A DNA stretch of 64,000 nucleotides from Arachis hypogaea (Eukaryota; Streptophyta; Magnoliopsida; Fabales; Fabaceae), in contig NC_092043.1 of NCBI RefSeq assembly GCF_003086295.3, positions 47,582,598-47,646,597 on the forward strand, read 5' to 3'. The notes under the pieces were generated by a model, which saw only the letters and a program-made list of their open reading frames with translations, was not told the DNA's origin and ran no database searches. Below, piece by piece: positions 29,332 through 61,577 of the stretch. The translations under genes and the position numbers were made by a program. How positions within the stretch are numbered: the stretch's first letter is position 1; each line of letters begins with the position of its first letter.

Positions 29332-29398
<67 letters not shown>

Positions 29399-29610
29399 AA
29401 TTTAACAACATTTAGTGAATACATAATAAATCAACTTTAAAACATTTTAGTTCATTTTTCTTGCAGATATTGAGTTATTTGTTTACTATATACGACACTT
29501 TTTCTATTTTAAATATAAATACTTTGTGAATTTTTTTATTTTATATAAGGTAAATATATTTATGAATAACTTATTTTAAAAACATATTTCAGACATAAAT
29601 ATAAAAAAAA
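28140..29610. other. AT-rich spacer
   Basis: Upstream region of the minus-strand membrane-protein gene, passing into A/T-rich DNA with a long TTA microsatellite. No gene seen. Confidence 0.5.
29335..29394. repeat. (TTA)n microsatellite
   Basis: About 19-20 TTA/ATT units, nearly uninterrupted. Confidence 0.95.
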
Positions 29611-33432: not shown

Positions 33433-35923
33433 AAGTATAAGCTAAAAAAGAAAAAAAATAAAAATAAAAAATCTCAAAATAACTCAAGTTTTAAATAAAA
33501 AATATTTTTTTTAAATATAAAGCTAATACAAATATCTTGGAAATCTCAAACAACCCTTTCAAAAAAAAAAAAAAAAAAAACAAAATCAACGATAAAATTG
33601 CTAATGTTAAACGCAATAAATTTGACTATTTCTTCTGTCTTGTACACATTAATCATCCATTCACTCACTCCAATTCTTCTATCTTAATTAAGTCATAGAT
33701 CAGTGCATTACAAGAAAATCCAGAACTGATGAAGTTCAAGGTAGCGAATGCATCGGAATACCTGGTAATAACAGGTGCAGGGATCAAAGACGTGAAGCTT
33801 GCGAAGAAAGCATGGGTGTTGCCATGGCAATCATGCACCACCTTGGACCTTTCTCCGGTAAACTACACGTTCGAGCTCCAAGCCATGAGCGCCGAGAAGC
33901 TCCCTTTCAAGCTTCCTTCGGTGTTCACAATTGGTCCACGTGTCGATGATCACGAGTGTCTCCTAAAGTACGCCAAGCTCCTCTCGTCCCATGATAAGCT
34001 CTCCAACCACGTTAATGATCTCGTCCAAGGAGTCATTGAGGGCGAGACGCGTGTTCTCGCAGCATCTATGACTATGGATCAGATCTTCAGGGGAACCAAG
34101 GAGTTCAAGCAAGGTATGCAATATCAATAACTTCAACTTTTTTTCCCCTTCTCTGCCTTTCAACTTACTTTCTTAAATCAACAATATATTTAAATTTAAA
34201 TTATATTTAGATAGTTAGATATGTATCAATGTATCATAGTATCATACTTCATAGAGTTGATTTATGATTATACTAGAAAAAAAAAGTGGGGTTAAAAGGC
34301 CTTATTAAAAGGTTGTCAATGGTGAAAGTCCTAAAATAATTAGGTATTATCAATTAGAAAGAATGCACCATAAATCCTCTTTAATAGTTTTACAATCAGC
34401 TTTTGTTTTTCTTAGTTGTATGCAAACCTATTTAAAATACGATTGAATTGATTTTTAAAAGTAATGCTAGAGAACTAATGTTTTGGTCAGTATCTAATAC
34501 CTTGGAACTTCTGAAAAATTATGATTGCACCTTATTGTGAACTTCTAAAAAATTATGAGTAATAGAAATAACAGACATCAACTAATTGAAACTAACATAC
34601 ATGTAACCGTTACTTGAAGGTGTGTTCGAGAAGGTTCAGCTGGAACTGAATCAGTTTGGGCTGCTGATCTACAATGCAAATGTGAAGCAACTGGTGGACG
34701 TGCCGGGACATGAGTACTTCTCTTACTTGGGCAAGAAGACTCAGATGGAGGCCGCAAATCAGGCCAAGGTGGACGTTGCTGAGGCCAAGAAGAAGGGTGA
34801 GGTTGGTGCCAAGCTCAGGGAAGGCGAGACGCTCCAGAATGCCGCCAAGATTGATGCTGAGACGAAGATCATTGCCACTCAGAAGAAAGGCGAGGGCGAT
34901 AAGGAGGAGATCAACGTAATTAAATAATGTTGTATTTTCATTATTCTTTAATGAAAGAAATACATAGTTTATATTGATATAGTTTTGAAACATGTTTATT
35001 TGAGTGTTGTAGGTGAGGACATCAGTGAAGGTGTTCGAGAACTTGAAGGATGCAGAGGTGGCAGAGGCAAATGCAGAGCTGGCAAGGAAGAAGGCGGAGT
35101 GGTCGAAGGTGGCGAAGTTGGCAGAAATGGAGACTACAAAGGCAGTGTCTTTGAGGGAGGCAGAGCTGCAGGGGGAGGTTGAGAGGATGAATGCTAAGGC
35201 GAAGACTGAGAAACTTAGAGCTGATTACCTTACCAAGGCAAGCGTTGAGTATGAGACCAAGGTTAGTGCCTTCACAACTTTTTTTTAATTATTTTTTATA
35301 TAAAATTTAAATTCTAACTCTAAAGTCTAAACCCTAAACCTTCTATAAAAAGTAATGATATTAACTAACTAAAAAATAATTATCTATAATTATACTATAC
35401 AACTCGATGAACTCATTAATTAGTATCCTTCCTTATATACTATTTCTACTCACGAAGCTTGTAATCTCACTGAATTTCTAAGATTGGCCATTGGACAAAG
35501 TAAAATAATGCAACTTATTATTAATTCTTGAACTTTGCAATAATAACTGCATGGTAACATTTAGAATTTGTCAGATACTTTTTGTTTTCTGTGAATTTTG
35601 CGATATTAGATAGTTGATTCAAACACTTTTGCTCATAATGTGTCAATATATAAATGCGGAATGAAATCCTAGTTACTTTTACTCTTTATGGATCCACAAC
35701 AAGTAAAATTATTTGATAGGCACAAGAGGCCAACTGGGAACTATACAAGAAACAAAAAGAAGCAGAAGCAGTTCTTTTCCAGAAGGAAAAAGAAGCTGAA
35801 GCACAAAAGAAATTAGCAGAGGCACAGTTTTTCGCTCGCCAACAAGCCGCGGATGCACAGCTATACGCGAAAAAGAAGGAGGCAGAGGGGCTTATGGCAT
35901 TAGGGAAAGCCCAAGGTGCATAT

Positions 35924-36340
35924 TGTTGGGAATAAGACACAATTCCCCCTTGAGAAAACACCTTTGACAGAGAAATAAAATAGACACAATCACAACACAA
36001 GAATTTAACGTGGAAACTCCAATTACCGGAGAAAAAATCACGGCCGTTGTCAAATGACAACCAGAGAATATCACTATGTGAAAATTGTTACAACACATAG
36101 ACTTCTTTCTCTCACCGGCACCCCAGTACACCCACACTCTTTCAAAGCAAATATCTAACTACACCTCACAACACTCTCTAATCAAAGAGTACAGAGGAAA
36201 AGAAAAATCAGATACAAGCTTAAAGTGTTTCTGACTGGTGCAAAAACAAATGGAGAACTTAGCCTCATATTTATAGCCTAGGCCACCCACTCCATTTGCT
36301 ATCCTAAGCAATGTGGGACTAATTCAACCAAATCCTAACA
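35924..36340 (-). repeat. LTR (3' LTR in element sense)
   Basis: 417 bp, TG...CA ends. Contains tatttatagcc (36269-36279) on the + strand, and AT-rich promoter-like words on the minus strand. Identical to the other LTR except at 36038. Confidence 0.95.
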
Positions 36341-36709
36341 ATCTCCACCTTGATTGAAATAGTCACACATCTTCAGCTTCCATTGTCAACACCGACAATT
36401 CTTTGCTGCCATTGTCTATACCGACAATCATAGTTCAGAGAACTATCATACTCCACCATGAAAGTATACTCACTTGGAATTAGACCACTCCAAGCATTTC
36501 GCCTTGGTACAGATCGAAACCTTGCTGAAAATTCATGGTGCAACTTCCAAATTGGCTTTTCCTGGAAGTTCTTCAGCCATCGACCTAACTCCGCCACACA
36601 CCTTGCATCTCAACGCCAACCAATGCCCGTGTGCAATTGTGGACCTGATTGCCACAACTCATCCTTATCCATGGCAGTGCGGTAATACCATGAGGATACT
36701 TCTTGTCTT

Positions 36710-37483
36710 CTAGAGAACATCATCTTCTCTCATAGAGAGAGCAATATTGCAAGTATCAGATTGAGAGTCTTTTTCTGAAACCGCATTACCTGGACAATTT
36801 CTCTTTACATGCCCAGACTTTCCACATTTCCAGCATGTTACACTCCTTCCACGATTTCCTTTTCCATAATTGTCACTTCTAGCTACAAGCGCCAAATCTG
36901 ATGAAGTGCTACCCTCATTTTTCATTCTTCTTTCTTCAGCAATGAGCTTACTGGCAACTTCTTCAAAATTCAGAGTTTCCTTCCCATACATTAAAATAGG
37001 TTTGATATACTCATAGGAAGAAGGAAGAGACAATATGAGCCTCAGTGCCTTATCTTCATCATCAATTTTCACTCCAATTGCCTCTAATTCAGAGACAATA
37101 CCATTGATAGCACTAAGATGGTCGGAGATTTTCACATTGTGATCCATGCGTAGATTATGGAACTGCTCCTTCAATAACAACCGATTTGAGATGCCCTTTG
37201 CCTGATACAACCCTTCGAGTTTATCCCAAAGTTCCTTGGCTGTTTTCATTCCTTGCACATTTGCAAGAACATTCTTAGCCAAACACAGGCGAATAGCACT
37301 TGCAGCTCTCAAATCTAGTTCCTCCCAATCTTCATCCTTCATACCAGAGATCCTCTCCTTCAACGCCTTGTGCAAACCTGATTGTATCAACACATCCTTG
37401 ACTTGTACTTGCCACAAGCCAAAATTGATTCTTCCATCAAATTTCTCTATTTCAAGCTTCACAGCACTTGAATATCCAGACAT
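36710..37483 (-). CDS. Copia-type Gag polyprotein, 257 aa
   Basis: Intact ORF on the minus strand, inside the element and downstream of its primer-binding site. The N-terminal part has KFDGRINFGLWQVQVKDVL, typical of the copia gag/UBN2 family, followed by LWDKLEGLY and the region ending RLILSLPSSYEYI. The C-terminus has a CCHC zinc knuckle: C217, C220, H225, C230 in CWKCGKSGHVKRNC. Gag assembles the virus-like particle and binds element RNA. The ORF ends ~25 residues after the knuckle, without a protease active-site motif; the ~370 bases beyond it to the LTR are non-coding remains. An intact gag with no pol suggests selection on gag or very recent origin. Confidence 0.93.
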   Translation of the reverse strand: MSGYSSAVKLEIEKFDGRINFGLWQVQVKDVLIQSGLHKALKERISGMKDEDWEELDLRAASAIRLCLAKNVLANVQGMKTAKELWDKLEGLYQAKGISNRLLLKEQFHNLRMDHNVKISDHLSAINGIVSELEAIGVKIDDEDKALRLILSLPSSYEYIKPILMYGKETLNFEEVASKLIAEERRMKNEGSTSSDLALVARSDNYGKGNRGRSVTCWKCGKSGHVKRNCPGNAVSEKDSQSDTCNIALSMREDDVL

Positions 37484-37766
37484 TGTTGCAACCGTATACT
37501 GGAATAGTATAACTCAACTGTAGACCGTGCACTAGGAAGGGTCCCCAGGAAAGAGAGGTGGGTCACAATGGACACACTTAAATACCAAGTCTTTCCTTAG
37601 CCAGAACCTTTTCCAAACTGCACTCTCACAGTGTCACACTGCCTTCCAGCAACAACAACAGCAACCAAAGATCAACCTCAAGCCACAGGACAAAATTCTT
37701 TTCTGATGTGGAAGGTCAGACTAGGCTGCAACCACAGAGCATACTAAGAATAAATCCCACCGAACC

Positions 37767-37783
37767 GAAGCTCTGATACCACT
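37767..37783 (-). promoter_or_regulatory. Retroelement primer-binding site
   Basis: On the minus strand TGGTATCAGAGCTTCGG starts right after the LTR (one or two spacer bases). It is complementary to the 3' end of initiator methionine tRNA, the usual primer of plant copia elements. Confidence 0.9.
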
Positions 37784-38200
37784 TGTTGGGAATAAGACAC
37801 AATTCCCCCTTGAGAAAACACCTTTGACAGAGAAATAAAATAGACACAATCACAACACAAGAATTTAACGTGGAAACTCCAATTACCGGAGAAAAAACCA
37901 CGGCCGTTGTCAAATGACAACCAGAGAATATCACTATGTGAAAATTGTTACAACACATAGACTTCTTTCTCTCACCGGCACCCCAGTACACCCACACTCT
38001 TTCAAAGCAAATATCTAACTACACCTCACAACACTCTCTAATCAAAGAGTACAGAGGAAAAGAAAAATCAGATACAAGCTTAAAGTGTTTCTGACTGGTG
38101 CAAAAACAAATGGAGAACTTAGCCTCATATTTATAGCCTAGGCCACCCACTCCATTTGCTATCCTAAGCAATGTGGGACTAATTCAACCAAATCCTAACA
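37784..38200 (-). repeat. LTR (5' LTR in element sense)
   Basis: 417 bp, same ends as the other LTR, with one base difference at 37898. Confidence 0.95.
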
Positions 38201-38834
38201 CATATCTAAAGACACTCCATGAAGCACTTGGAGGAAACTATGCAGCTCTAAGGGACTACTTGATGATAGAGGGTGGAATGTATCAAGAGATTGCTAAGAT
38301 TAATGGCGACGCAGTACGTGGACTCAAGCCGAATATCAGCATTTGGACGAACGGCAATGGCGAAGGCAGTGACGGCGGTAGTGCTTTGAAGGAGGTTGCC
38401 GGTGTGTATAAGATGTTGCCACCTTTGTTTAAGACAGTTGAAGAACAAACTGGTATGCTGCCTCCAGCTTGGATGGGAATCTTGACTCAAAAGAATGCGG
38501 ACCAAACTTCTCTAAAGTGAAAAAGATTAATAAAGTGATAAACCCGAATCAAATATCATTTTAATATTTTACCAATCTCTTTAGTTTGGGAGATTTTCTT
38601 CAAAAGAATGTTTATATTATGTGTTAACTCATCTACCATTAATATGACATGATTAAGTATTAGTTCTACTCAATAAATTTGCTTATTTTCTTTTGTTATT
38701 AGGCTATTTCTACATTCAATATATAGTGTTTTTTTCATAATTTCTTTTTATAGAGTATTAGATCCCTTTTACAATATTGTAATAACAATAAAATCTATAT
38801 ATTTCAGAAAATAATTAATAGGAGGATCGTATCT

Positions 38835-39308: not shown

Positions 39309-41978
39309 ATGAAGTTCAAGGTAGCAAATGCATCGGAATACCTGGTAATAACAGGTGCAGGGATCAAAGACGTGAAGCTTGCGAAGAAAGCATGGGTGTT
39401 TCCATGGCAATCATGCACCACCTTGTACCTTTCTCCGGTAAACTACACGTTCGAGCTCCAAGCCATGAGCGCCGAGAAGCTCCCTTTCGAGCTTCTTTCG
39501 GTGTTAACAATTGGTCCACGTGTCGACGATCACGAGTGTCTCCTAAAGTACGCCAAGCTCCTCTCGTCCCCTGATAAGCTCTCCAACCACGTTAATGATC
39601 TCGTCCAAAGAATCATCGAGGGCGAGACGCGTGTTCTCGCAGGCTCTATGACTATGGACGAGATCTTCAAGGGAACCAAGGAGTTCAAGCAAGGTATGCA
39701 ATAACAATAACTTCACCTTTTTTTCTTCTCTGCCTTTTAACTTACTTTCTTAAATCAACAATATATTTAAATTTAAATTGTACTTAGATAGTTAGATATG
39801 TATCAATGTATCGTAATATCATACTTCTTACCGTTGATTTATGAATATGCTAGAAAAAAAAAAGTGGGGTTAAAAGGCCTTATTAAAAGGTTGTCAATGG
39901 TAAAAGACTAAAGTCCTAAAATATTAGGTATTATCAATTATCAATTAGAAAGAATGCACCATAAATCTTATTAAAAGGTTGTCAATGGTAAAAGTCTTAA
40001 AATATTATGTATTATCAATTATCAATTATCAATTAGAAACAATGCACCATAAATCCTCTTTAATTGTTTTACAATCAACTTTTTTTTTTCTTAGTTGTAT
40101 GCAAACCTATTTAAAATACGATTGAATTGGTTTTTAAAAGTAATGCTAGAGAACTAATGTTTTGGTTAATATCTATTACTTTTTTTAAATTTTTTTTTTT
40201 AATTTTAGATTTTAAATCATAAATTTTTAATCTTATATCCTAAATCTTAAATCTTAAATTTTAAATTTTAAATTTTAAATTCTTCTAAAAAAAATGGAAT
40301 TAGAAAAGAAAAACAACTTAATATTCCCTATACTTTTTTCTTTTTTTTTTCTTTTTCTAATCATATCACCAAAGAAACAAATGATTTTTCTACCAAACAT
40401 TCAAATAACCCTATTTTATTTAGGTTAGAACTTCTAAAAAATTATGATTGCACCTTATTGTAAACCTAATTTGCAAAATGTTGGTAATAATGTTACTCAT
40501 GAGTAACAGAAATCAATTAATTGAAACTAACATGCATGTAACCGTTACTTAAAGGTGTGTTCGAGAAAGTTCAGCTAGAACTGAATCAGTTTGGGCTGCT
40601 GATCTACAATGCGAACTTGAAGCAGCTGGTGGACGTGCCTGGACCTGAGTACTTCTCTTACTTGGGCAAGAAGACTCAGATGGAGGCCGCAAATCAGGCC
40701 AAGGTGAACGTTGCTGAGGCCAAGAAGAAGGGAGAGGTTGGTGCCAAGCTTAGCGAAGGCGAGACGCTCCAGAATGCGGCCAAGATCGATGCGGAGACGA
40801 AGATCATTACCACTCAGAAGAAAGGCGACGGCAATAAGGAGGAGATCGACGTAATTAAATAATGTTTTGTACTTTTATTATTCTTTAATGAAGGAAATGC
40901 ATAGTTTATATTGATATAGTCTTGAAACATGTTTATTTGAGTGTTGTAGGCGAGGACATCAGTGGAGGAGTTTGAGATTTTGAAGGAAGCAAAGGTGGCA
41001 GAGGCAAATGCGGAGCTGGCAAGGAAGAAGGCGGAGTGGTGGAAGTGGTGGAAGGTAGAGAAGTTGACGGCGATCGAGACTAAAAAGGAAGTGTCTTTGA
41101 GGGAGGCACAGCTGCAGGGGGAGGTTGAGAAGATGAATGCTAAGGTGACAACTGAGAAACTTAGAGCTGATTACCTTCCCAAGGTTAGTGCCTTCACAAC
41201 TTTTTTTTAATTATTTTTTATATAATTTTAAATTCTAATTCTAAACCCTAAACCTTTTATAAAAATTAATGATATTAACTTGCTAAACGTTAATTATCTA
41301 TAATTATACTATGCAATTCATTAATTAGTATCCTTCCATGTAAACTATTTCTACTCATGAAGTATGTATTATCACTGAATTTCTAAGATTGGCCATTGGA
41401 CGAAGTAAAATAATGCAACTTATCATCAATTCTTGAATTGTGCAATAATAACTGCATGATAACATTTTGAATTTATCAGATACTTTTTGTTTTCTGTGAA
41501 TTTTGCGATATTAGATAGTTGATTCAAACACTTTTGCTCATGATGTGTCAATATACAAATGCGGAATGAAATCCTAGTTACTTTTACTCTTTATGAATCC
41601 ATAACAAGTAAAATTATTTGATAGGCACAAAAGGTCAACTGGGAACTATACAAGAAACAAAAAGAAGCAGAAGCAGTTCTTTTCCAAAAGGAGAAAGAAG
41701 CTTTAGCACAAATGAAATTAGCAGCTGCGCAGCTATACGCGAAGAAGAAGGAGGCAGAGGGGCTTATGGAATTAGGGAAAGCCCAAGGTGCATATCTAAA
41801 GACACTCCATGAAGCACTTGGAGGAAACTATGCAGCTCTAAGGGACTACTTGATGATAGAACGTGGAATGTATCAAGAGATTGCTAAGATTAATGGCGAC
41901 GCAGTACGTGGACTCAAGCCGGAAATCAGCAAATGGACGAACGGCAATGGCGAAGGCAGTAACAGCGGAGTGCTTTGA
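39309..41978 (+). CDS. Flotillin-like protein, copy 2, truncated and diverged (422 aa)
   Basis: Exons 39309-39693, 40555-40850, 40950-41183 and 41625-41978. The SPFH-domain exons are intact but carry replacements such as TTLYLSPV for TTLDLSPV and [10 protein letters not shown] for [10 protein letters not shown]. Exon 3 has a 9-base insertion ([10 protein letters not shown] for EWSKVAK) and lacks 24 bases (ASVEYETK). Exon 4 lacks 33 bases around [11 protein letters not shown] 2-base loss near 41968 then shifts the frame to an early TGA at 41976-41978. Further on, ~110 bp that would encode the end ([16 protein letters not shown]...) are deleted (junction near 42027). The early indels are in frame, hinting at a period under constraint before the terminal damage. 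Flotillins need the C-terminal part for oligomerisation, so I expect loss of function or altered function. Confidence 0.82.
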
Positions 41979-49967: not shown

Positions 49968-52692
49968 ATGATGTTCAAGGTAGCGAATGCATCGGAATAC
50001 CTGGTAATAACAGGTGCTGGGATCAAAGACGTGAAGCTTGCGAAGAAAGCATGGGTGTTTCCATGGCAATCATGCACCACCTTGGACCTTTCTCCGGTAA
50101 ACTACACGTTCGAGCTCCAAGCCATGAGCGCCGAGAAGCTCCCTTTCAAGCTTCCTTCGGTGTTCACAATTGGTCCACGTGTCGACGATCACGAGTCTCT
50201 CTTAAAGTACGCCAAGCTCCTGTCGACCCATGATAAGCTCTCCAACCACGTTAATGATCTCGTCCAAGGAGTCATTGAGGGTGAGACGCGTGTTCTCGCC
50301 GCCTCTATGACTATGGACGAGATCTTCAAAGGAACCAAGGAGTTCAAGCAAGGTATGCAATAACAATAACTTCACCTTTTTTTCTTCTCTGCCTTTTAAC
50401 TTACTTTCTTAAATCAACAATATATTTAAATTTAAATTGTACTTAGATAGTTAGATATGTATCAATGTATCGTAATATCATACTTCTTACGGTTGATTTA
50501 TGAATATACTAGAAAAAAGGTGGGGTTAAAAGGCCTTATTAAAAGGTTGTCAATGGTAAAAGTCCTAAAATATTAGGTCTTATCAATTAGAAAGAATGCA
50601 CCATAAATCCTCTTTAATTGTTTTACAATCAACTTTTTTCCCTTTAGTTGTATGCAAACCTATTTAAAATACGATTGAATTGATTTTTAAAAGTAATGCT
50701 AGAGAACTAATATTTTGGTAAATATCTATTACTTTTTCAAAAATTTTATTTATTTTAAAATTTTAGATTTTAAATCATAAATCTTTAATCTTAAATCCTA
50801 AATTTTATATTTTAAATTCTTCCAAAAAAATAGAAACAGAAAAGAAAAACGACTTAATATTCCCTATACTTTTTTCATTTTTCTTTTTCTAATCATATCA
50901 CCAAAGAAAAAAAAATGATTTTTCTACTAAACATCCAAATAACCCTATTGGCCTATTTTATTTGATTGCACCTTATTGTGAACTTAATTTGCAAAATGTT
51001 GGTAATAATGTTACTCATGAGTAACAGAAATCAATTAATTGAAACTAACATGCATGTAACCGTTACTTGAAGGTGTGTTCGAGAAAGTTCAGCTAGAACT
51101 GAATCAGTTTGGGCTGCTGATCTACAATGCGAACGTGAAGCAGCTGGTGGATGTGCCGGGACATGAGTACTTCTCTTACTTGGGCAAGAAGACTCAGATG
51201 GAGGCTGCAAATCAGGCCAAGGTGGACGTTGCTGAAGCCAAGAAGAAGGGAGAGGTTGGTGCCAAGCTTAGGGAAGGCGAGACGCTCCAGAATGCGGCCA
51301 AGATCGACGCTGAGACGAAGATCATTGCCACTCAGAAGAAAGGCGAGGGCGATAAGGAGGAGATCAACGTAACTAAATAATGTTTTGTATTTTCATTATT
51401 CTTTAATGAAAGAAATACATAGTTTATAGTGATATAGTCTTGAAACATGTTTATTTGAGTGTTGTAGGTGAGGACATCAGTGAAGGTGTTTGAGAATTCT
51501 AAGGAAGCAGAGGTGGCAGAGGCAAATGCAGAGCTAGCAAGGAAGAAGGCGGAGTGGTCGAAGGTGGCAAAGTTGGCGGAGATGGAGGCTACAAAGGCAG
51601 TGTCTTTGAGGGAGGCAGAGCTGCAGGGGGAGGTTGAGAGGATGAATGCTAAGGCCAGGACTGAGAAACTTAGAGCTGATTACCTTACCCAGGCAAGCGT
51701 TGAGTATGAGACCAAGGTTAGTGCCTTCACAACTTTTTTTTAATTATTTTTTATAGAAATTTTAATTTCTAAATTTTAAATTCTAACTCTAAATCCTAAA
51801 CCTTCTATAAAAATTAATGATATTAACTAAATAAAAATTAATTATCTATAATTATTCTATACAACTCATTAATTAGTATCCTTCCTTGTATACTATTTCT
51901 GCTCATGAAGTATGTAATCTCACTGAATTTCTGAGACTGGCCATTGGACAAAGTAAAATAATGCAACTTATCATCAATTCTTGAATTGTGCAATAATAAC
52001 TGCATGATAACATTTTGAATTTATCAAATACTTTTTGTTTTCTGTGAATTTTGCGATATTAGATAATTGATTCAAACACTTTTGCTCATGATGTGTCAAT
52101 ATATAAAATGCGGAATGAAATCCTAGTTACTTTTACTCTTTATGGATCCATAACAAGTAAAATTATTTGATAGGCACAAGAGGCCAACTGGGAACTATAC
52201 AAGAAACAAAAAGAAGCAGAAGCAGTTCTTTTCCAGAAGGAGAAAGAAGCTGAAGCACAAAAGAAATTGGCAGAGGCAGAGTTTTTCGCTCGCCAACAAG
52301 CCGCCGATGCGCAGCTATATGCGAAGAAGAAGGAGGCAGAGGGGCTTATGGCATTAGGGAAAGCCCAAGGTGCATATCTAAAGACACTCCATGAAGCACT
52401 TGGAGGAAACTATGCAGCTCTAAGGGACTACTTGATGATAGAACGTGGAATGTATCAAGAGATTGCTAGGATTAATGGCGACGCGGTACGTGGACTCAAG
52501 CCGAATATCAGCATTTGGACAAACGGCAATGGCGAAGGTGGTGACGGTGGCAGTGCTTTGAAGGAGGTTGCCGGTGTGTATAAGATGTTGCCACCTTTGT
52601 TTAAGACAGTTGAAGAACAAACTGGTATGCTGCCTCCGGCTTGGATGGGAACCTTGCCTCCAAAGAATGCGGATCAAGCTTCTTTAAAGTGA
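49968..52692 (+). CDS. Flotillin-like protein, copy 3, intact (482 aa)
   Basis: Exons 49968-50352, 51073-51368, 51468-51716 and 52174-52692 join in frame with GT-AG introns (385+296+249+519 bases). The N-terminus ([35 protein letters not shown]) and IGPRVDD mark the SPFH/band-7 domain of plant flotillins. C36 is at the position of a possible acylation site. Exons 2-4 contain the Glu/Ala-rich flotillin coiled coil ([62 protein letters not shown]). They end with a Gly-rich part and [20 protein letters not shown]. Flotillins scaffold plasma-membrane microdomains on the cytosolic side and take part in clathrin-independent endocytosis; in Medicago, FLOT2 and FLOT4 are needed for rhizobial infection. 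Length is normal for plant flotillins. The last codons and stop come from a MITE. Probably the only working copy of the three. Confidence 0.93.
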
Positions 52693-52772
52693 AAAGATTA
52701 GTAAAGTGATAAACATGAATGAAATATCATTTTAATATTTTACCAATTTCTATAGTTTAGGAGATTTCGTCA
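52670..52772. mobile_element. 103-bp MITE that supplies the flotillin stop codon
   Basis: Exact 8-bp repeats aaagaatg flank it (52662-52669 and 52773-52780). The ends, cggatcaagcttctttaaag and inverted tgacgaaatctcctaaac, resemble the hAT-type MITE in intron 8 of the membrane-protein gene (gatcctctaaagtg). The stop TGA (52690-52692) is the tga of aaagtga in the element end. The same element is present in copy 1 (38498-38599) and its right half in copy 2, so insertion preceded the triplication. Confidence 0.75.
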
Positions 52773-53889: not shown

Positions 53890-56645
53890 TACTTAACATT
53901 AATGTTACGGTGATAATGATAATTAATTGATTGGGCCGTTTTGGTAGTATTAGCTTCTTGTACCCTTGTCTGATTTTAATGTTAGGTTTAAATTTCAATT
54001 CTTTATTTTAATCCGCCCAGATCAAGATTTTTCGAAAGAAGGCGTAGTTTTAAACCGAACAATATATATTTCGGGCTAGGAAAAGATAATAATTATATTT
54101 ATAGTAAATAAAAAAAATAATATTAATAAGAAGAATACTATTAGCATGAAATGTAAAAAGAAACACTTTTTGTTAGTATTTGAAACAGTGTTGTGAAGAT
54201 CGAAGAGATAGTTTAGCCTTCTAAGCTTTAGGGTATGTTGCGTATCTCTTTTGGCCTGTGAAATACTGAAATCCAAATGCAATTAGCCATCCTTATATTT
54301 TTTTTTGAGTAAACTACTATTTGTATCTACGAAAGTTAAAAATACTGACATATTTATTTATAGAAGAAATTACCATTTGTATTCATGAAACATAAATTTT
54401 TGCTAATAAAACTATCCAAATCCAAAAAATTATTAAAATTTTCAAATTACCCCACCACCACCACCACTTACTCCACACCACCACTTTTTCAATCCCAAAC
54501 CCACCACCAAAATTCTTCCTCACCACCATCCTAAATCCTAATTACCACCATCACTCAATTTAAAGGCACCACCACCTCATTTCCTTCATCACTACCATCA
54601 TCACCACCACCACTATATCTCGATTATCATCTTCTTCACATAAAGCAACAACAACAACAACAACAATAGAAAAAGCAAATTGTCTGAGACCACGGCACCA
54701 CCACCTGCAAACACCAAGTTGTCCTCTCTCACCCGATTTCCACTCTTCTTCCTCTCTCTCGCCCCTTTTTAGCTCCTCTGCGTAGCCACAGCTGCGGCAC
54801 TCAACAGTCGCTGGCGCCGTCAAGTTCCACCCAACCTCCACTCGCCACCGCCGCGTCCTTTCCCCCTTTCTTTCCTCCTCCATCCTTTTCCTCTCTCTTT
54901 CTTCTTCTTCCTCTTGCCTCACCTCCGCGATCTCAGGACCACCGTCGCCTTCTGTTTTCGCCGCCTTTTACAATCCTAGAGCCCCTGCCGCTGTCTGATC
55001 GCTACCACTACCCCAACCCGTTCTAGCTAACCCTCAATCTCTCGCTGACACAGAGCTCCAGCCCCTGTCCAGTCCGCGGTTCCACCGGTCTTTCCCAGTC
55101 TACAAACCCAGAAACCACTAAACCTACATCACGTAACCATTCGAAGAAGTAGAAGAGAGAGAAGCAAAATATATAAGAAAAGATAGAGAAAGAGAGAGAG
55201 GAAGGAGTTGGCAGAGTTGACGGACTCTGGCGGCGGCGACGACCTCAGAAAATGGAAGGAGAGAGAGAGAGAGAATGGGGTTAGGGTTAGTGGTGGTGGT
55301 GGTGGTGGTGGTGGGAAAAAGATAATGCAAATGATGATAAGGGTAATTTGGAGTTTTTATGTGATTTTTTAGTATTTGGATAATTTTGTTATATAAAACT
55401 CATGTTTTATGAGTACAAATGGTAATTTCCTTTTTTATAGGTAGATATGTCAGCGTTTTCAACTTTCGTTGGTAGAAATGATAGTTTACTCTTTTTCTTT
55501 TTTCTAAACCCAAATAAATTAGGGGGTGCTCCCATAAAGACGCATAAAATGCATAGTTGTCAGAACTGAACCGGTGATTGAACCGGTCAAATTACTGGGT
55601 TATTAGGTCATTGGTTTAACTGGTGAGTTACTGGTTGAATCGGTTAACCCGATCCTATGTAAATAAAAAATTAAAAATAGTAAAAAATTTAAAATTAAAA
55701 TTTAAAAAATATATTTTTACTAACATTTTAACAATATATAGTTATTCTAAAATAATATGAAACAGGAATAATAAGTATTTTGTTAATTTTATTCTATCAT
55801 ATATATTTAAGAGAGATAATTAAACGAGAGATTTTGATTAATTTTTCTCAAAATCTCTCTTATTTTTAAGAGAGATTTTGAGAAAGAATTAAAGGAGAGA
55901 GATAATTTTATTGAAAAAAAATTAAAAAGAAAAGATACAATTACTAATTTTTATTTGTCAATTACATTTCTATTAAAATTAGTAGTATCAAAAAATATTT
56001 TAAATTTAATATTATGAAGAAAAAATAAAAAATTTATATAAGGACTAATTTGATTAATTTTTAAAATTTTAGTAATGAAAATGACTTACGTCTGAACTTT
56101 CAAGAACTATTTTGATTATAAATAACTTTTTTACATGTCGCCACGTGTCACCGATCTGACACGTGGCATGACATCTGTCATTGATCTAACACGTCAACCA
56201 ATCATCTTGTAACATGTGGCATTAACCCACCACATTATTATGCCACGTGGCATTTAACGTAACATATCATCATCCAACTGACAGAAGGACTAATGTGACC
56301 AAGTCGTGTATCTTTCAAAGATGATTTTGATTAATTTTGTCTTTCGAAGACTAAAATAAAGATCGAAATATCTTTTAAAGACAATTTTGACTATTAACTA
56401 TTTTATCTTAATAATATTTTTTATTTACTATAAATAAATATAATTATAATTTTTTCCTGTCCCGGAATATATATTGTTCGGCTTAAAACTAAGCCTTCCT
56501 TCCAAAAATTTTGGTCTGAGCAGATTAAAATAAAGAATTGAAATTTAAACCCAACATTAGAATCAGAAGGGTTCAAGTAGTTAATACTATCAAAAACGGC
56601 CCAATTAACTAATTATCATTATTACTATAGCATTAATGTTAAGTA
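53890..56645. mobile_element. Element with ~240-bp terminal inverted repeats
   Basis: The left arm 53890-54130 (tacttaacattaatgttacg, ttgggccgttttggtagtat, aatttcaattctttatttta, ccgaacaatatatatt) is the inverse complement of 56405-56645, with moderate divergence throughout. No transposase frame is seen. The interior contains a separate TIR element (54307-55491), an 'accggtt' repeat fragment (55560-55660) and acgtggcatg words (56130-56260). Class is unclear; a MULE or fold-back element is likely. No convincing target duplication was found. Confidence 0.65.
54307..55491. mobile_element. Nested MULE-like TIR element, 1,185 bp
   Basis: The left end gagtaaactactatttgtat and the right end, reverse complemented, gagtaaactatcatttctac stay similar for about 100 bases (acgaaagttaaaaa, ctgacatat, aaattaccatttgta). 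T-rich sequence on both sides makes the duplication ambiguous. The interior is GC-rich, with (CCA)n at 54452-54620, CT-rich runs, (GA)n and (GGT)n at 55288-55312. The 120-aa minus frame at 54560-54922 is low-complexity and not supported as a gene. Confidence 0.7.
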
Positions 56646-60690: not shown

Positions 60691-60696
60691 AATTTC

Positions 60697-60817
<121 letters not shown>

Positions 60818-61577
60818 GCTTAATTAAGTTCTTTTTGAAAAAATAGCTCAAAACAAAAAATATTTATATTCAAAGTAGTTTATAAATAAGTTATTTTGTA
60901 TTTAGTTTTTTTAGTTCTAAAAGTGCTTATTTTAAAAGAAATATGATAAAAAAAATTTATTATGAGAAAATTTATTTTTTTAACTTTTTCATAAACACTT
61001 AAATAGTTTCTTAAAAAGTTACAATTTGATTTTAAAAATTGTACCAGACATTAATACTATATATTTTCACAAGTTAAAAATAAAAACAAGTTACTTATGA
61101 ATCTATCCAAACATGCCATAAGTATAATCAAAGTTATTCTTTTATTTTCACTTGAATCTCAACTTGATCACCAAATTATCAATTAGAATCGCTATTTCAT
61201 AATTGGACTAACTTAACACACACACATGTATGTATGTACGTGCAAAAATTATGTTAACAATTTTTTTTTTGTTAAATTTGTAACTTAATTTCATATGCAT
61301 AATGTCAAATTGTCAACAAGAATCTGATAATGTCCTATTTTAAAAAATGTTTGTACTAAAAAAATATTTGAATTTGAATTTTAAAGTATTATTATTCATC
61401 TTGTTTGTTTTCAATGAAAAGAGTGCATATATGCAAGTGTCATCATTCACGTATACAAAGTTAAGTTAATAATAATAAAGGTTGATATATAGTAAAAGTA
61501 AAATGAACAGGACTGTTATGTCTTATATAAAAAAATGTTGGAGATTAATTTGTATATTAAATTTTTGAAAGACTAAG

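What the first reader, a model, noticed from the sequence alone, without database searches (positions are those of the whole stretch)
35924..38200. Very young gag-only copia element inserted in a flotillin coding exon
The element is complete: catat target duplication, two 417-bp LTRs differing at one base, intact gag with CCHC knuckle, and an initiator-tRNA-Met primer site. It has no protease, integrase or polymerase. It sits inside exon 4 of flotillin copy 1 and truncates the frame three codons in. An intact gag in a non-autonomous element supports the idea that such elements keep gag for packaging in trans. The near-identical LTRs mean the insertion is recent, so other lines or sister species may still have the empty site.
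Basis: partly seen in the sequence, partly recalled or inferred. Interest (0 to 1): 0.75.

Follow-up and report, generated by a model that had tools for sequence, protein, structure and literature searches.

The report
Capsid-only jumping gene, old lineage
A recently inserted plant jumping gene that carries only a capsid gene, and so must borrow its copying enzymes, interrupts one of three neighbouring copies of a membrane-protein gene, and its capsid belongs to what looks like an old line of such capsid-only elements in flowering plants.

Summary
Window 35924-38200 holds a 2,277-bp LTR element on the minus strand: two 417-bp LTRs with one difference, CATAT target duplications, a primer site, a purine tract, one intact 257-aa copia Gag and no recognisable pol. 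It stops a 482-codon flotillin-like frame three codons in. Two paralogues in the window carry the empty site with a single CATAT.

Structurally this is a known kind, TR-GAG. Stand-alone Gags, mostly of similar length and ending at the matching place, occur in 13 named eudicot genera; 72 of them form one clade. The 20 Gags from autonomous-type proteins that I sampled are 34-47% identical to this Gag, the 71 stand-alone ones 58-93%. Pieces of its leader and post-gag tail recur in other genera. The only Gags of this type seen joined to a protease are from Kingdonia (Ranunculales).

So this is probably a young copy of an old helper-dependent lineage that brings its own capsid and borrows pol, not a fresh deletion product. 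The helper is inferred, not seen. The host-genome search did not complete (22 requests), so copy number, partner element and dN/dS remain open.

The parts
35919..35923 (.). target site duplication, left copy (CATAT)
35924..36340 (-). LTR, 417 bp; 3' LTR in element orientation
   Evidence: one difference to the other LTR
36341..36351 (-). polypurine tract AAGGTGGAGAT next to the 3' LTR
   Evidence: role recalled
36341..36709 (-). post-gag tail, 369 bp, no recognised domain
   Evidence: matches stretches after Gag in five proteins
36710..37483 (-). gag, 257 aa, copia-type capsid domain and knuckle
36794..36835 (-). CCHC zinc knuckle within gag
37484..37783 (-). 5' leader, 300 bp, from LTR end to gag start
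   Evidence: matches stretches before Gag in four proteins
37770..37781 (-). primer binding site TGGTATCAGAGC
   Evidence: tRNA identity recalled
37784..38200 (-). LTR, 417 bp; 5' LTR in element orientation
38130..38135 (-). TATA-like box in the 5' LTR
   Evidence: consensus only
38201..38205 (.). target site duplication, right copy (CATAT)
33729..38520 (+). flotillin-like gene copy 1; coding exons 33729-34113, 34620-34915, 35013-35261 and exon 4 (35720-35923 continued at 38206-38520), interrupted by the element
   Evidence: longest-frame splice model
41781..41825 (+). empty site in flotillin-like copy 2
52363..52407 (+). empty site in flotillin-like copy 3

Best explanation
The element is a recent copy of an old, helper-dependent Copia lineage that encodes only its own capsid protein. 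Shown: it is complete at both ends, carries a 5-bp target duplication and has nearly identical LTRs, so it arrived by reverse transcription and integration although it encodes neither enzyme; its Gag has the copia capsid profile and predicted fold plus a knuckle; its nearest Gags are stand-alone ORFs of many eudicots that form one clade. Inferred: the LTR drives one RNA, Gag is translated from it and assembles particles, the conserved leader helps load or prime the RNA, and protease, RT-RNaseH and integrase come from a distantly related autonomous copia element whose Gag-Pol joins the same particles. It would be a satellite that brings its own coat and borrows the polymerase, the mirror image of BARE2, which lacks Gag and borrows it.
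For: 72 stand-alone rows form one side of a branch (99/92) and 20 autonomous-type rows another (100/100); 100/100 when the two Kingdonia rows are left out. Window Gag is 58-93% identical (median 66) to 71 stand-alone rows and 34-47% (median 41) to the 20 autonomous rows. Of 140 Gag domains that score better with the stand-alone profile, 137 have no protease motif in the next 150 residues. 71 of the 75 listed short hits with a knuckle end within 45 residues after it. Tail matches above the best shuffle in five proteins (Arachis hypogaea, Hibiscus cannabinus twice, Centaurea, one unnamed) and leader matches in four (Taraxacum three, Senna one). Copia capsid by profile (E 1.8e-21) and by fold (E 3.4e-9). 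A TR-GAG transposes in Arabidopsis ddm1 (PMC8704663, abstract and passages).
Against: No helper was seen. No DNA of any relative was read, so LTRs and absence of pol are shown only for the window copy. Several tail and leader matches come from spliced gene models, and three (P0012, P0078, P0224) are only 2-4 bits above the best shuffle. The profiles were built from the same rows they classify. Window Gag is about as close to Centaurea (70%) as to Trifolium (70%), a fellow legume, which simple vertical descent does not predict. The tree program warned of long branches joining Kingdonia. The gene models P0123 and P0189 hold both pol domains and a Gag of this type, with the Gag after the pol.
Confidence: 0.66

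Rival explanations
1. Recent deletion derivative: an autonomous copia family in the same genome lost pol not long ago, and this copy is moved by its own parent family.
For: This is the usual origin of non-autonomous copies. The host genome was not searched (22 unanswered requests, the last). In Arabidopsis the TR-GAG AT5TE33540 has a close autonomous relative in the same subfamily (PMC8704663, passages).
Against: No Gag-Pol protein close to this Gag was listed: the 120 of 131 listed long hits hold no contiguous gag-then-pol protein over about 47% identity to it except the Kingdonia Gag-protease models. Stand-alone Gags of other genera end at the same place, and the same tail follows gag elsewhere.
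Confidence: 0.12
2. The stand-alone Gags of other species belong to autonomous elements whose gag and pol are separate ORFs, so only the window copy is truly gag-only.
For: Protein databases would show such gags as separate proteins; DNA of the relatives was not read.
Against: In five proteins gag is followed by the same tail as in the window element, not by pol. [quoted passage not shown]
Confidence: 0.09
3. An autonomous lineage with this Gag existed, or exists unsampled, and lost pol several times; the gag-only state is repeated and not inherited.
For: Kingdonia keeps Gag joined to protease. Window Gag is as near to Centaurea as to Trifolium, so several old lineages or transfers exist.
Against: Monophyly of the 72 rows and the shared gag-tail order in Arachis, Hibiscus and Centaurea fit one loss better.
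Confidence: 0.13
4. Gag is kept because it interferes with, or regulates, other copia elements, or serves the host, and not to package the element itself.
For: Ty1 p22 and Drt2, Gag-derived restriction factors, are among the weaker fold matches (E 0.16-0.3). Putative Gag domestication is reported in sunflower (PMC9784723, abstract and passages).
Against: This gag sits in a complete, recently moved element with both LTRs and keeps the RNA-binding knuckle; p22 is a capsid C-terminal piece (entry titles).
Confidence: 0.1

Closest known systems
TR-GAG elements (terminal repeat with GAG domain; founding paper Chaparro et al. 2015 not held; AT5TE33540 in PMC8704663)
   Same: Two LTRs around a single gag ORF, no pol, capable of transposition
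   Different: AT5TE33540 encodes a 562-aa GAG and has a close autonomous relative; here Gag is 257 aa and no close Gag-Pol relative was listed
BARE2 of barley (PMC3735527, abstract and passages)
   Same: Non-autonomous copia element that depends on another element's proteins
   Different: Opposite division: BARE2 cannot make Gag, this element makes only Gag
Drosophila Copia VLP protein / copia gag capsid (PDB 8vvw, 8s41; PMC11835246, abstract)
   Same: Same Gag extent (profile over 9-256 of 267 positions) and predicted capsid fold
   Different: Copia is autonomous and makes its Gag from a complete element; spliced Gag-only mRNA of copia is recalled
Kingdonia uniflora Gag-protease models P0122 and P0181
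   Same: Nearest Gag type outside the stand-alone clade
   Different: Gag continues into a protease motif
Old TRIM families such as Cassandra (recalled, no call)
   Same: Widespread non-autonomous LTR family moved in trans
   Different: TRIMs encode no protein

Membership tests
TR-GAG | two LTRs with target site duplication | tested here: met
TR-GAG | single ORF, coding for Gag | tested here: met
TR-GAG | no protease, integrase, RT or RNaseH | tested here: met
   six frames read by eye; no Pfam match of weight in five other ORFs
TR-GAG | short element, under about 4 kb (limit recalled) | tested here: met
   2,277 bp
TR-GAG | present as a repeated family in the host genome | not tested
   The genome search did not answer 22 requests, last; no second copy in the window
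Copia (Ty1) superfamily by Gag | copia-type Gag domain | tested here: met
   PF14223 E 8e-37; Copia VLP protein E 1.8e-21
Copia (Ty1) superfamily by Gag | order protease-integrase-RT-RNaseH in pol | tested here: not met
   no pol in the element; membership rests on Gag and ends only
One gag-only clade of eudicots | stand-alone Gags monophyletic against autonomous Gags | tested here: met
   with rows chosen as told in the report
One gag-only clade of eudicots | relatives have LTRs and lack pol at DNA level | not testable with these tools
   no plant DNA collection; only tails and leaders inside predicted proteins were seen
One gag-only clade of eudicots | purifying selection on gag (dN/dS below 1) | not testable with these tools
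   no DNA of relatives could be fetched

The most novel reading that the evidence does not exclude
A single lineage of gag-only copia elements arose once near the base of the core eudicots and has persisted since as self-coating satellites of distantly related autonomous copia elements, its Gag kept by selection on the element itself and its leader and tail kept as packaging or priming signals, with occasional jumps between species, for example between a daisy-family plant and a parasitic broomrape.
Probability: 0.4. Interest if true: 0.78.

Novelty: new member of a known kind. Interest (0 to 1): 0.58.

Why it matters
Non-autonomous LTR elements are usually read as short-lived wreckage. If a gag-only line has lasted across eudicot orders with its own capsid, then capsid and polymerase can be supplied by different elements for a very long time, as in satellite viruses that encode their own coat (recalled comparison). 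That makes it testable which signals let a foreign Gag-Pol serve it, and why gag and not pol is worth keeping. The window copy is a handy test object: intact, recent, in a defined exon, with two empty-site paralogues beside it.

Tried and rejected
Rejected: chance repeat (end pattern expected 0 times in 100 shuffles); old insertion (one LTR difference); a missed pol.

Led nowhere: a viral-contig scan with the Gag alignment gave 47 pattern matches, none a relative; a protein search with the tail-bearing end of P0047 found only P0047 itself among 2 candidates; the first structure model, from 17 sequences, was poor (pLDDT 44.7); RNA folding of the leader gave z -1.6 against 200 shuffles, not notable; a first tblastn script failed on an option and was rerun.

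Literature on a eudicot-wide gag-only lineage: 'TR-GAG'+'copia'+'eudicot' 0 papers; 'gag-only'+'retrotransposon'+'plant' 2 papers, both off topic by title; 'TR-GAG' 12 papers, all listed. Passages were read in 5 of these 12 (PMC9784723, PMC8704663, PMC6022998, PMC7464718, PMC11728184); the other 7 were seen as listings. Also read in passages: PMC7730604, PMC3735527; PMC6696364, one reference-list passage; PMC11835246, abstract and outline only. The founding TR-GAG paper is not held. I do not claim that the lineage is not in print.

The AU tests on Asteraceae rows and Orobanche rows named the groups after the tree had been seen.

Full report
What is there. The element fills 35924-38200 on the minus strand: 5' LTR 37784-38200, primer site, a 300-bp leader, gag 36710-37483, a 369-bp tail ending in a purine tract, and 3' LTR 35924-36340. 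The LTRs are 417 bp each and differ at one position; CATAT flanks both ends. The only ORF of 200 aa or more in it is a 257-aa Gag with the copia Gag domain and one knuckle. The six frames of the 1,443-bp interior show no protease, integrase or RT by eye, and five other interior ORFs of 74-95 aa have no Pfam match better than E 0.18.

The host gene. Joined flanks read as a 482-codon flotillin-like protein; the insertion adds three codons and a stop at codon 382. Copy 3 (from 49968) has an intact 482-codon frame, and copy 2 (from 39309) gives 422 codons with several changes in the best splice model. Copy 3 carries the Band_7/SPFH domain (E 3.8e-22). Copy 3 probably buffers the loss (inference).

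Age. One difference in 417 bp gives about 0.09, 0.15 or 0.18 My at three recalled rates, with limits from about 2 thousand to 1.0 million years.

Relatives of the Gag. A search of 5.8 billion proteins gave 237 hits, 120 listed. The best named hit is Arachis hypogaea, 93% over 90% of the query, so the host is probably Arachis or near it (inference). Of the 120 listed, 75 have a knuckle, and 71 of these end within 45 residues after it; the exceptions are P0001, P0012, P0082 and P0112. Named genera among the tree's stand-alone rows are Arachis, Trifolium, Senna, Xanthoceras, Citrus, Hibiscus, Capsicum, Orobanche, Abeliophyllum, Helianthus, Tagetes, Centaurea and Taraxacum. Not every one of them is a clean stand-alone ORF: some are gene models with extra host-gene sequence, and some are cut short.

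Autonomous relatives. A second search, with the query lengthened so that polyproteins could be candidates, gave 131 hits, 120 listed. I compared 20 autonomous-type rows, namely 19 of these 120 picked by me for variety and P0112. Window Gag is 34-47% identical to them (median 41) and 58-93% (median 66) to 71 stand-alone rows, over local alignments of differing length. Long proteins with a closer Gag are gene models in which such a Gag is joined to host-gene or other transposon sequence. In P0123, P0124, P0125 and P0126 the protein ends at the Gag end or one residue later. P0123 and P0189 also contain pol domains, but before this Gag, next to another Gag-like stretch.

Tree. 94 rows: the window Gag, 68 of the 111 short hits P0001-P0111 (those covering at least 225 profile positions), the fused models P0123, P0124 and P0126, 20 autonomous-type rows and two Kingdonia rows. 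The 72 stand-alone rows are one side of a branch (99/92), the 20 autonomous rows another (100/100), and Kingdonia lies between. The program warned of long branches joining Kingdonia. Without Kingdonia the split is 100/100. Of 140 Gag domains in all 240 proteins that score better with the stand-alone profile than with the autonomous one, 137 lack a protease motif in the next 150 residues and 3 have one, all in Kingdonia P0122 and P0181; of 123 that score better with the autonomous profile, 76 have it. The profiles were built from some of the same rows, so this describes and does not test independently. Kingdonia is in Ranunculales, Arachis in rosids, Centaurea and Orobanche in asterids.

Leader and tail. 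Predicted proteins that run past gag can be compared with the non-coding parts of the window element. Of 123 stretches after Gag, five match the tail above the best of 20 rounds of shuffling (23.5 bits): P0001 102, P0047 45.1, P0188 39.7, P0078 27.7, P0012 26.2. Of 44 stretches before Gag, four match the leader above 23.1 bits: P0061 67.0, P0090 45.4, P0067 38.5, P0224 25.8. Crossed comparisons (after-Gag against leader, before-Gag against tail) reach at most 20.4 and 17.3 bits. The rest do not match above the control; many of them are pol of autonomous proteins or short ends. Several matching proteins are spliced gene models, P0047 is of unnamed source, and no DNA was seen. The same leader stretch is kept in one reading frame in P0061 and in another in P0067 and P0090, which points to kept nucleotides and not a kept peptide (inference).

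The protein. The 17-row profile matches Drosophila Copia VLP protein over positions 9-256 of 267 (E 1.8e-21). A model from 64 sequences has mean pLDDT 76 and pTM 0.47 and finds the Copia capsid first (E 3.4e-9, TM-score 0.44 by query length). A model from 17 sequences was poor.

How it works. Shown: it moved recently as a complete element, its Gag is intact and of capsid type, and its Gag type is that of a mostly stand-alone clade. Inferred: LTR-driven RNA (a TATA-like box lies in the LTR), own particles, and pol from a distant copia element. BARE2 of barley shows that a defective copia RNA can ride in particles of another element (PMC3735527, abstract and passages). The TR-GAG AT5TE33540 shows that gag-only elements can transpose (PMC8704663, abstract and passages).

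Known or new. By structure it is a TR-GAG, a described kind reported in several plants (PMC9784723 passages; PMC6022998 passages). In the passages read I saw no report of one stand-alone Gag clade across eudicot orders, but the founding paper was not readable, so priority is open.

Limits. The host genome was never searched, because the tool did not answer 22 requests. Many hits are unnamed, and only listed hits were used. Window Gag is as close to Centaurea (70%) as to Trifolium (70%), so several old lineages, saturation or horizontal spread must be part of the history, and a single vertical origin is not shown.

Noticed in passing
proteins P0011 and P0012 (relatives, not in the window): Gag of the parasitic plant Orobanche minor is 92% identical to that of Centaurea (another order), while Centaurea is 82% and 80% to Helianthus and Taraxacum of its own family; trees holding Asteraceae rows or Orobanche rows together are rejected (groups named after seeing the tree). 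Horizontal transfer or old paralogues.
   Followed up: partly
proteins P0122 and P0181 (Kingdonia uniflora): The only Gags of this type seen joined to a protease motif (3 of 140 domains); possibly a remnant of the autonomous ancestor.
   Followed up: partly
window 49968-52709 and 39309-41969: Two further flotillin-like copies in tandem: copy 3 intact (482 codons), copy 2 altered (422 codons in the best splice model).
   Followed up: partly
window 53969-54117 and 56419-56567: A 149-nt inverted repeat, 86% complementary, 2.3 kb apart; may be the ends of a DNA transposon.
   Followed up: no
window 29334-29399 and 60694-60822: A stretch at 29.3 kb is 98-100% complementary to many registers 3 nt apart at 60.7 kb, a simple repeat on opposite strands.
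   Followed up: no
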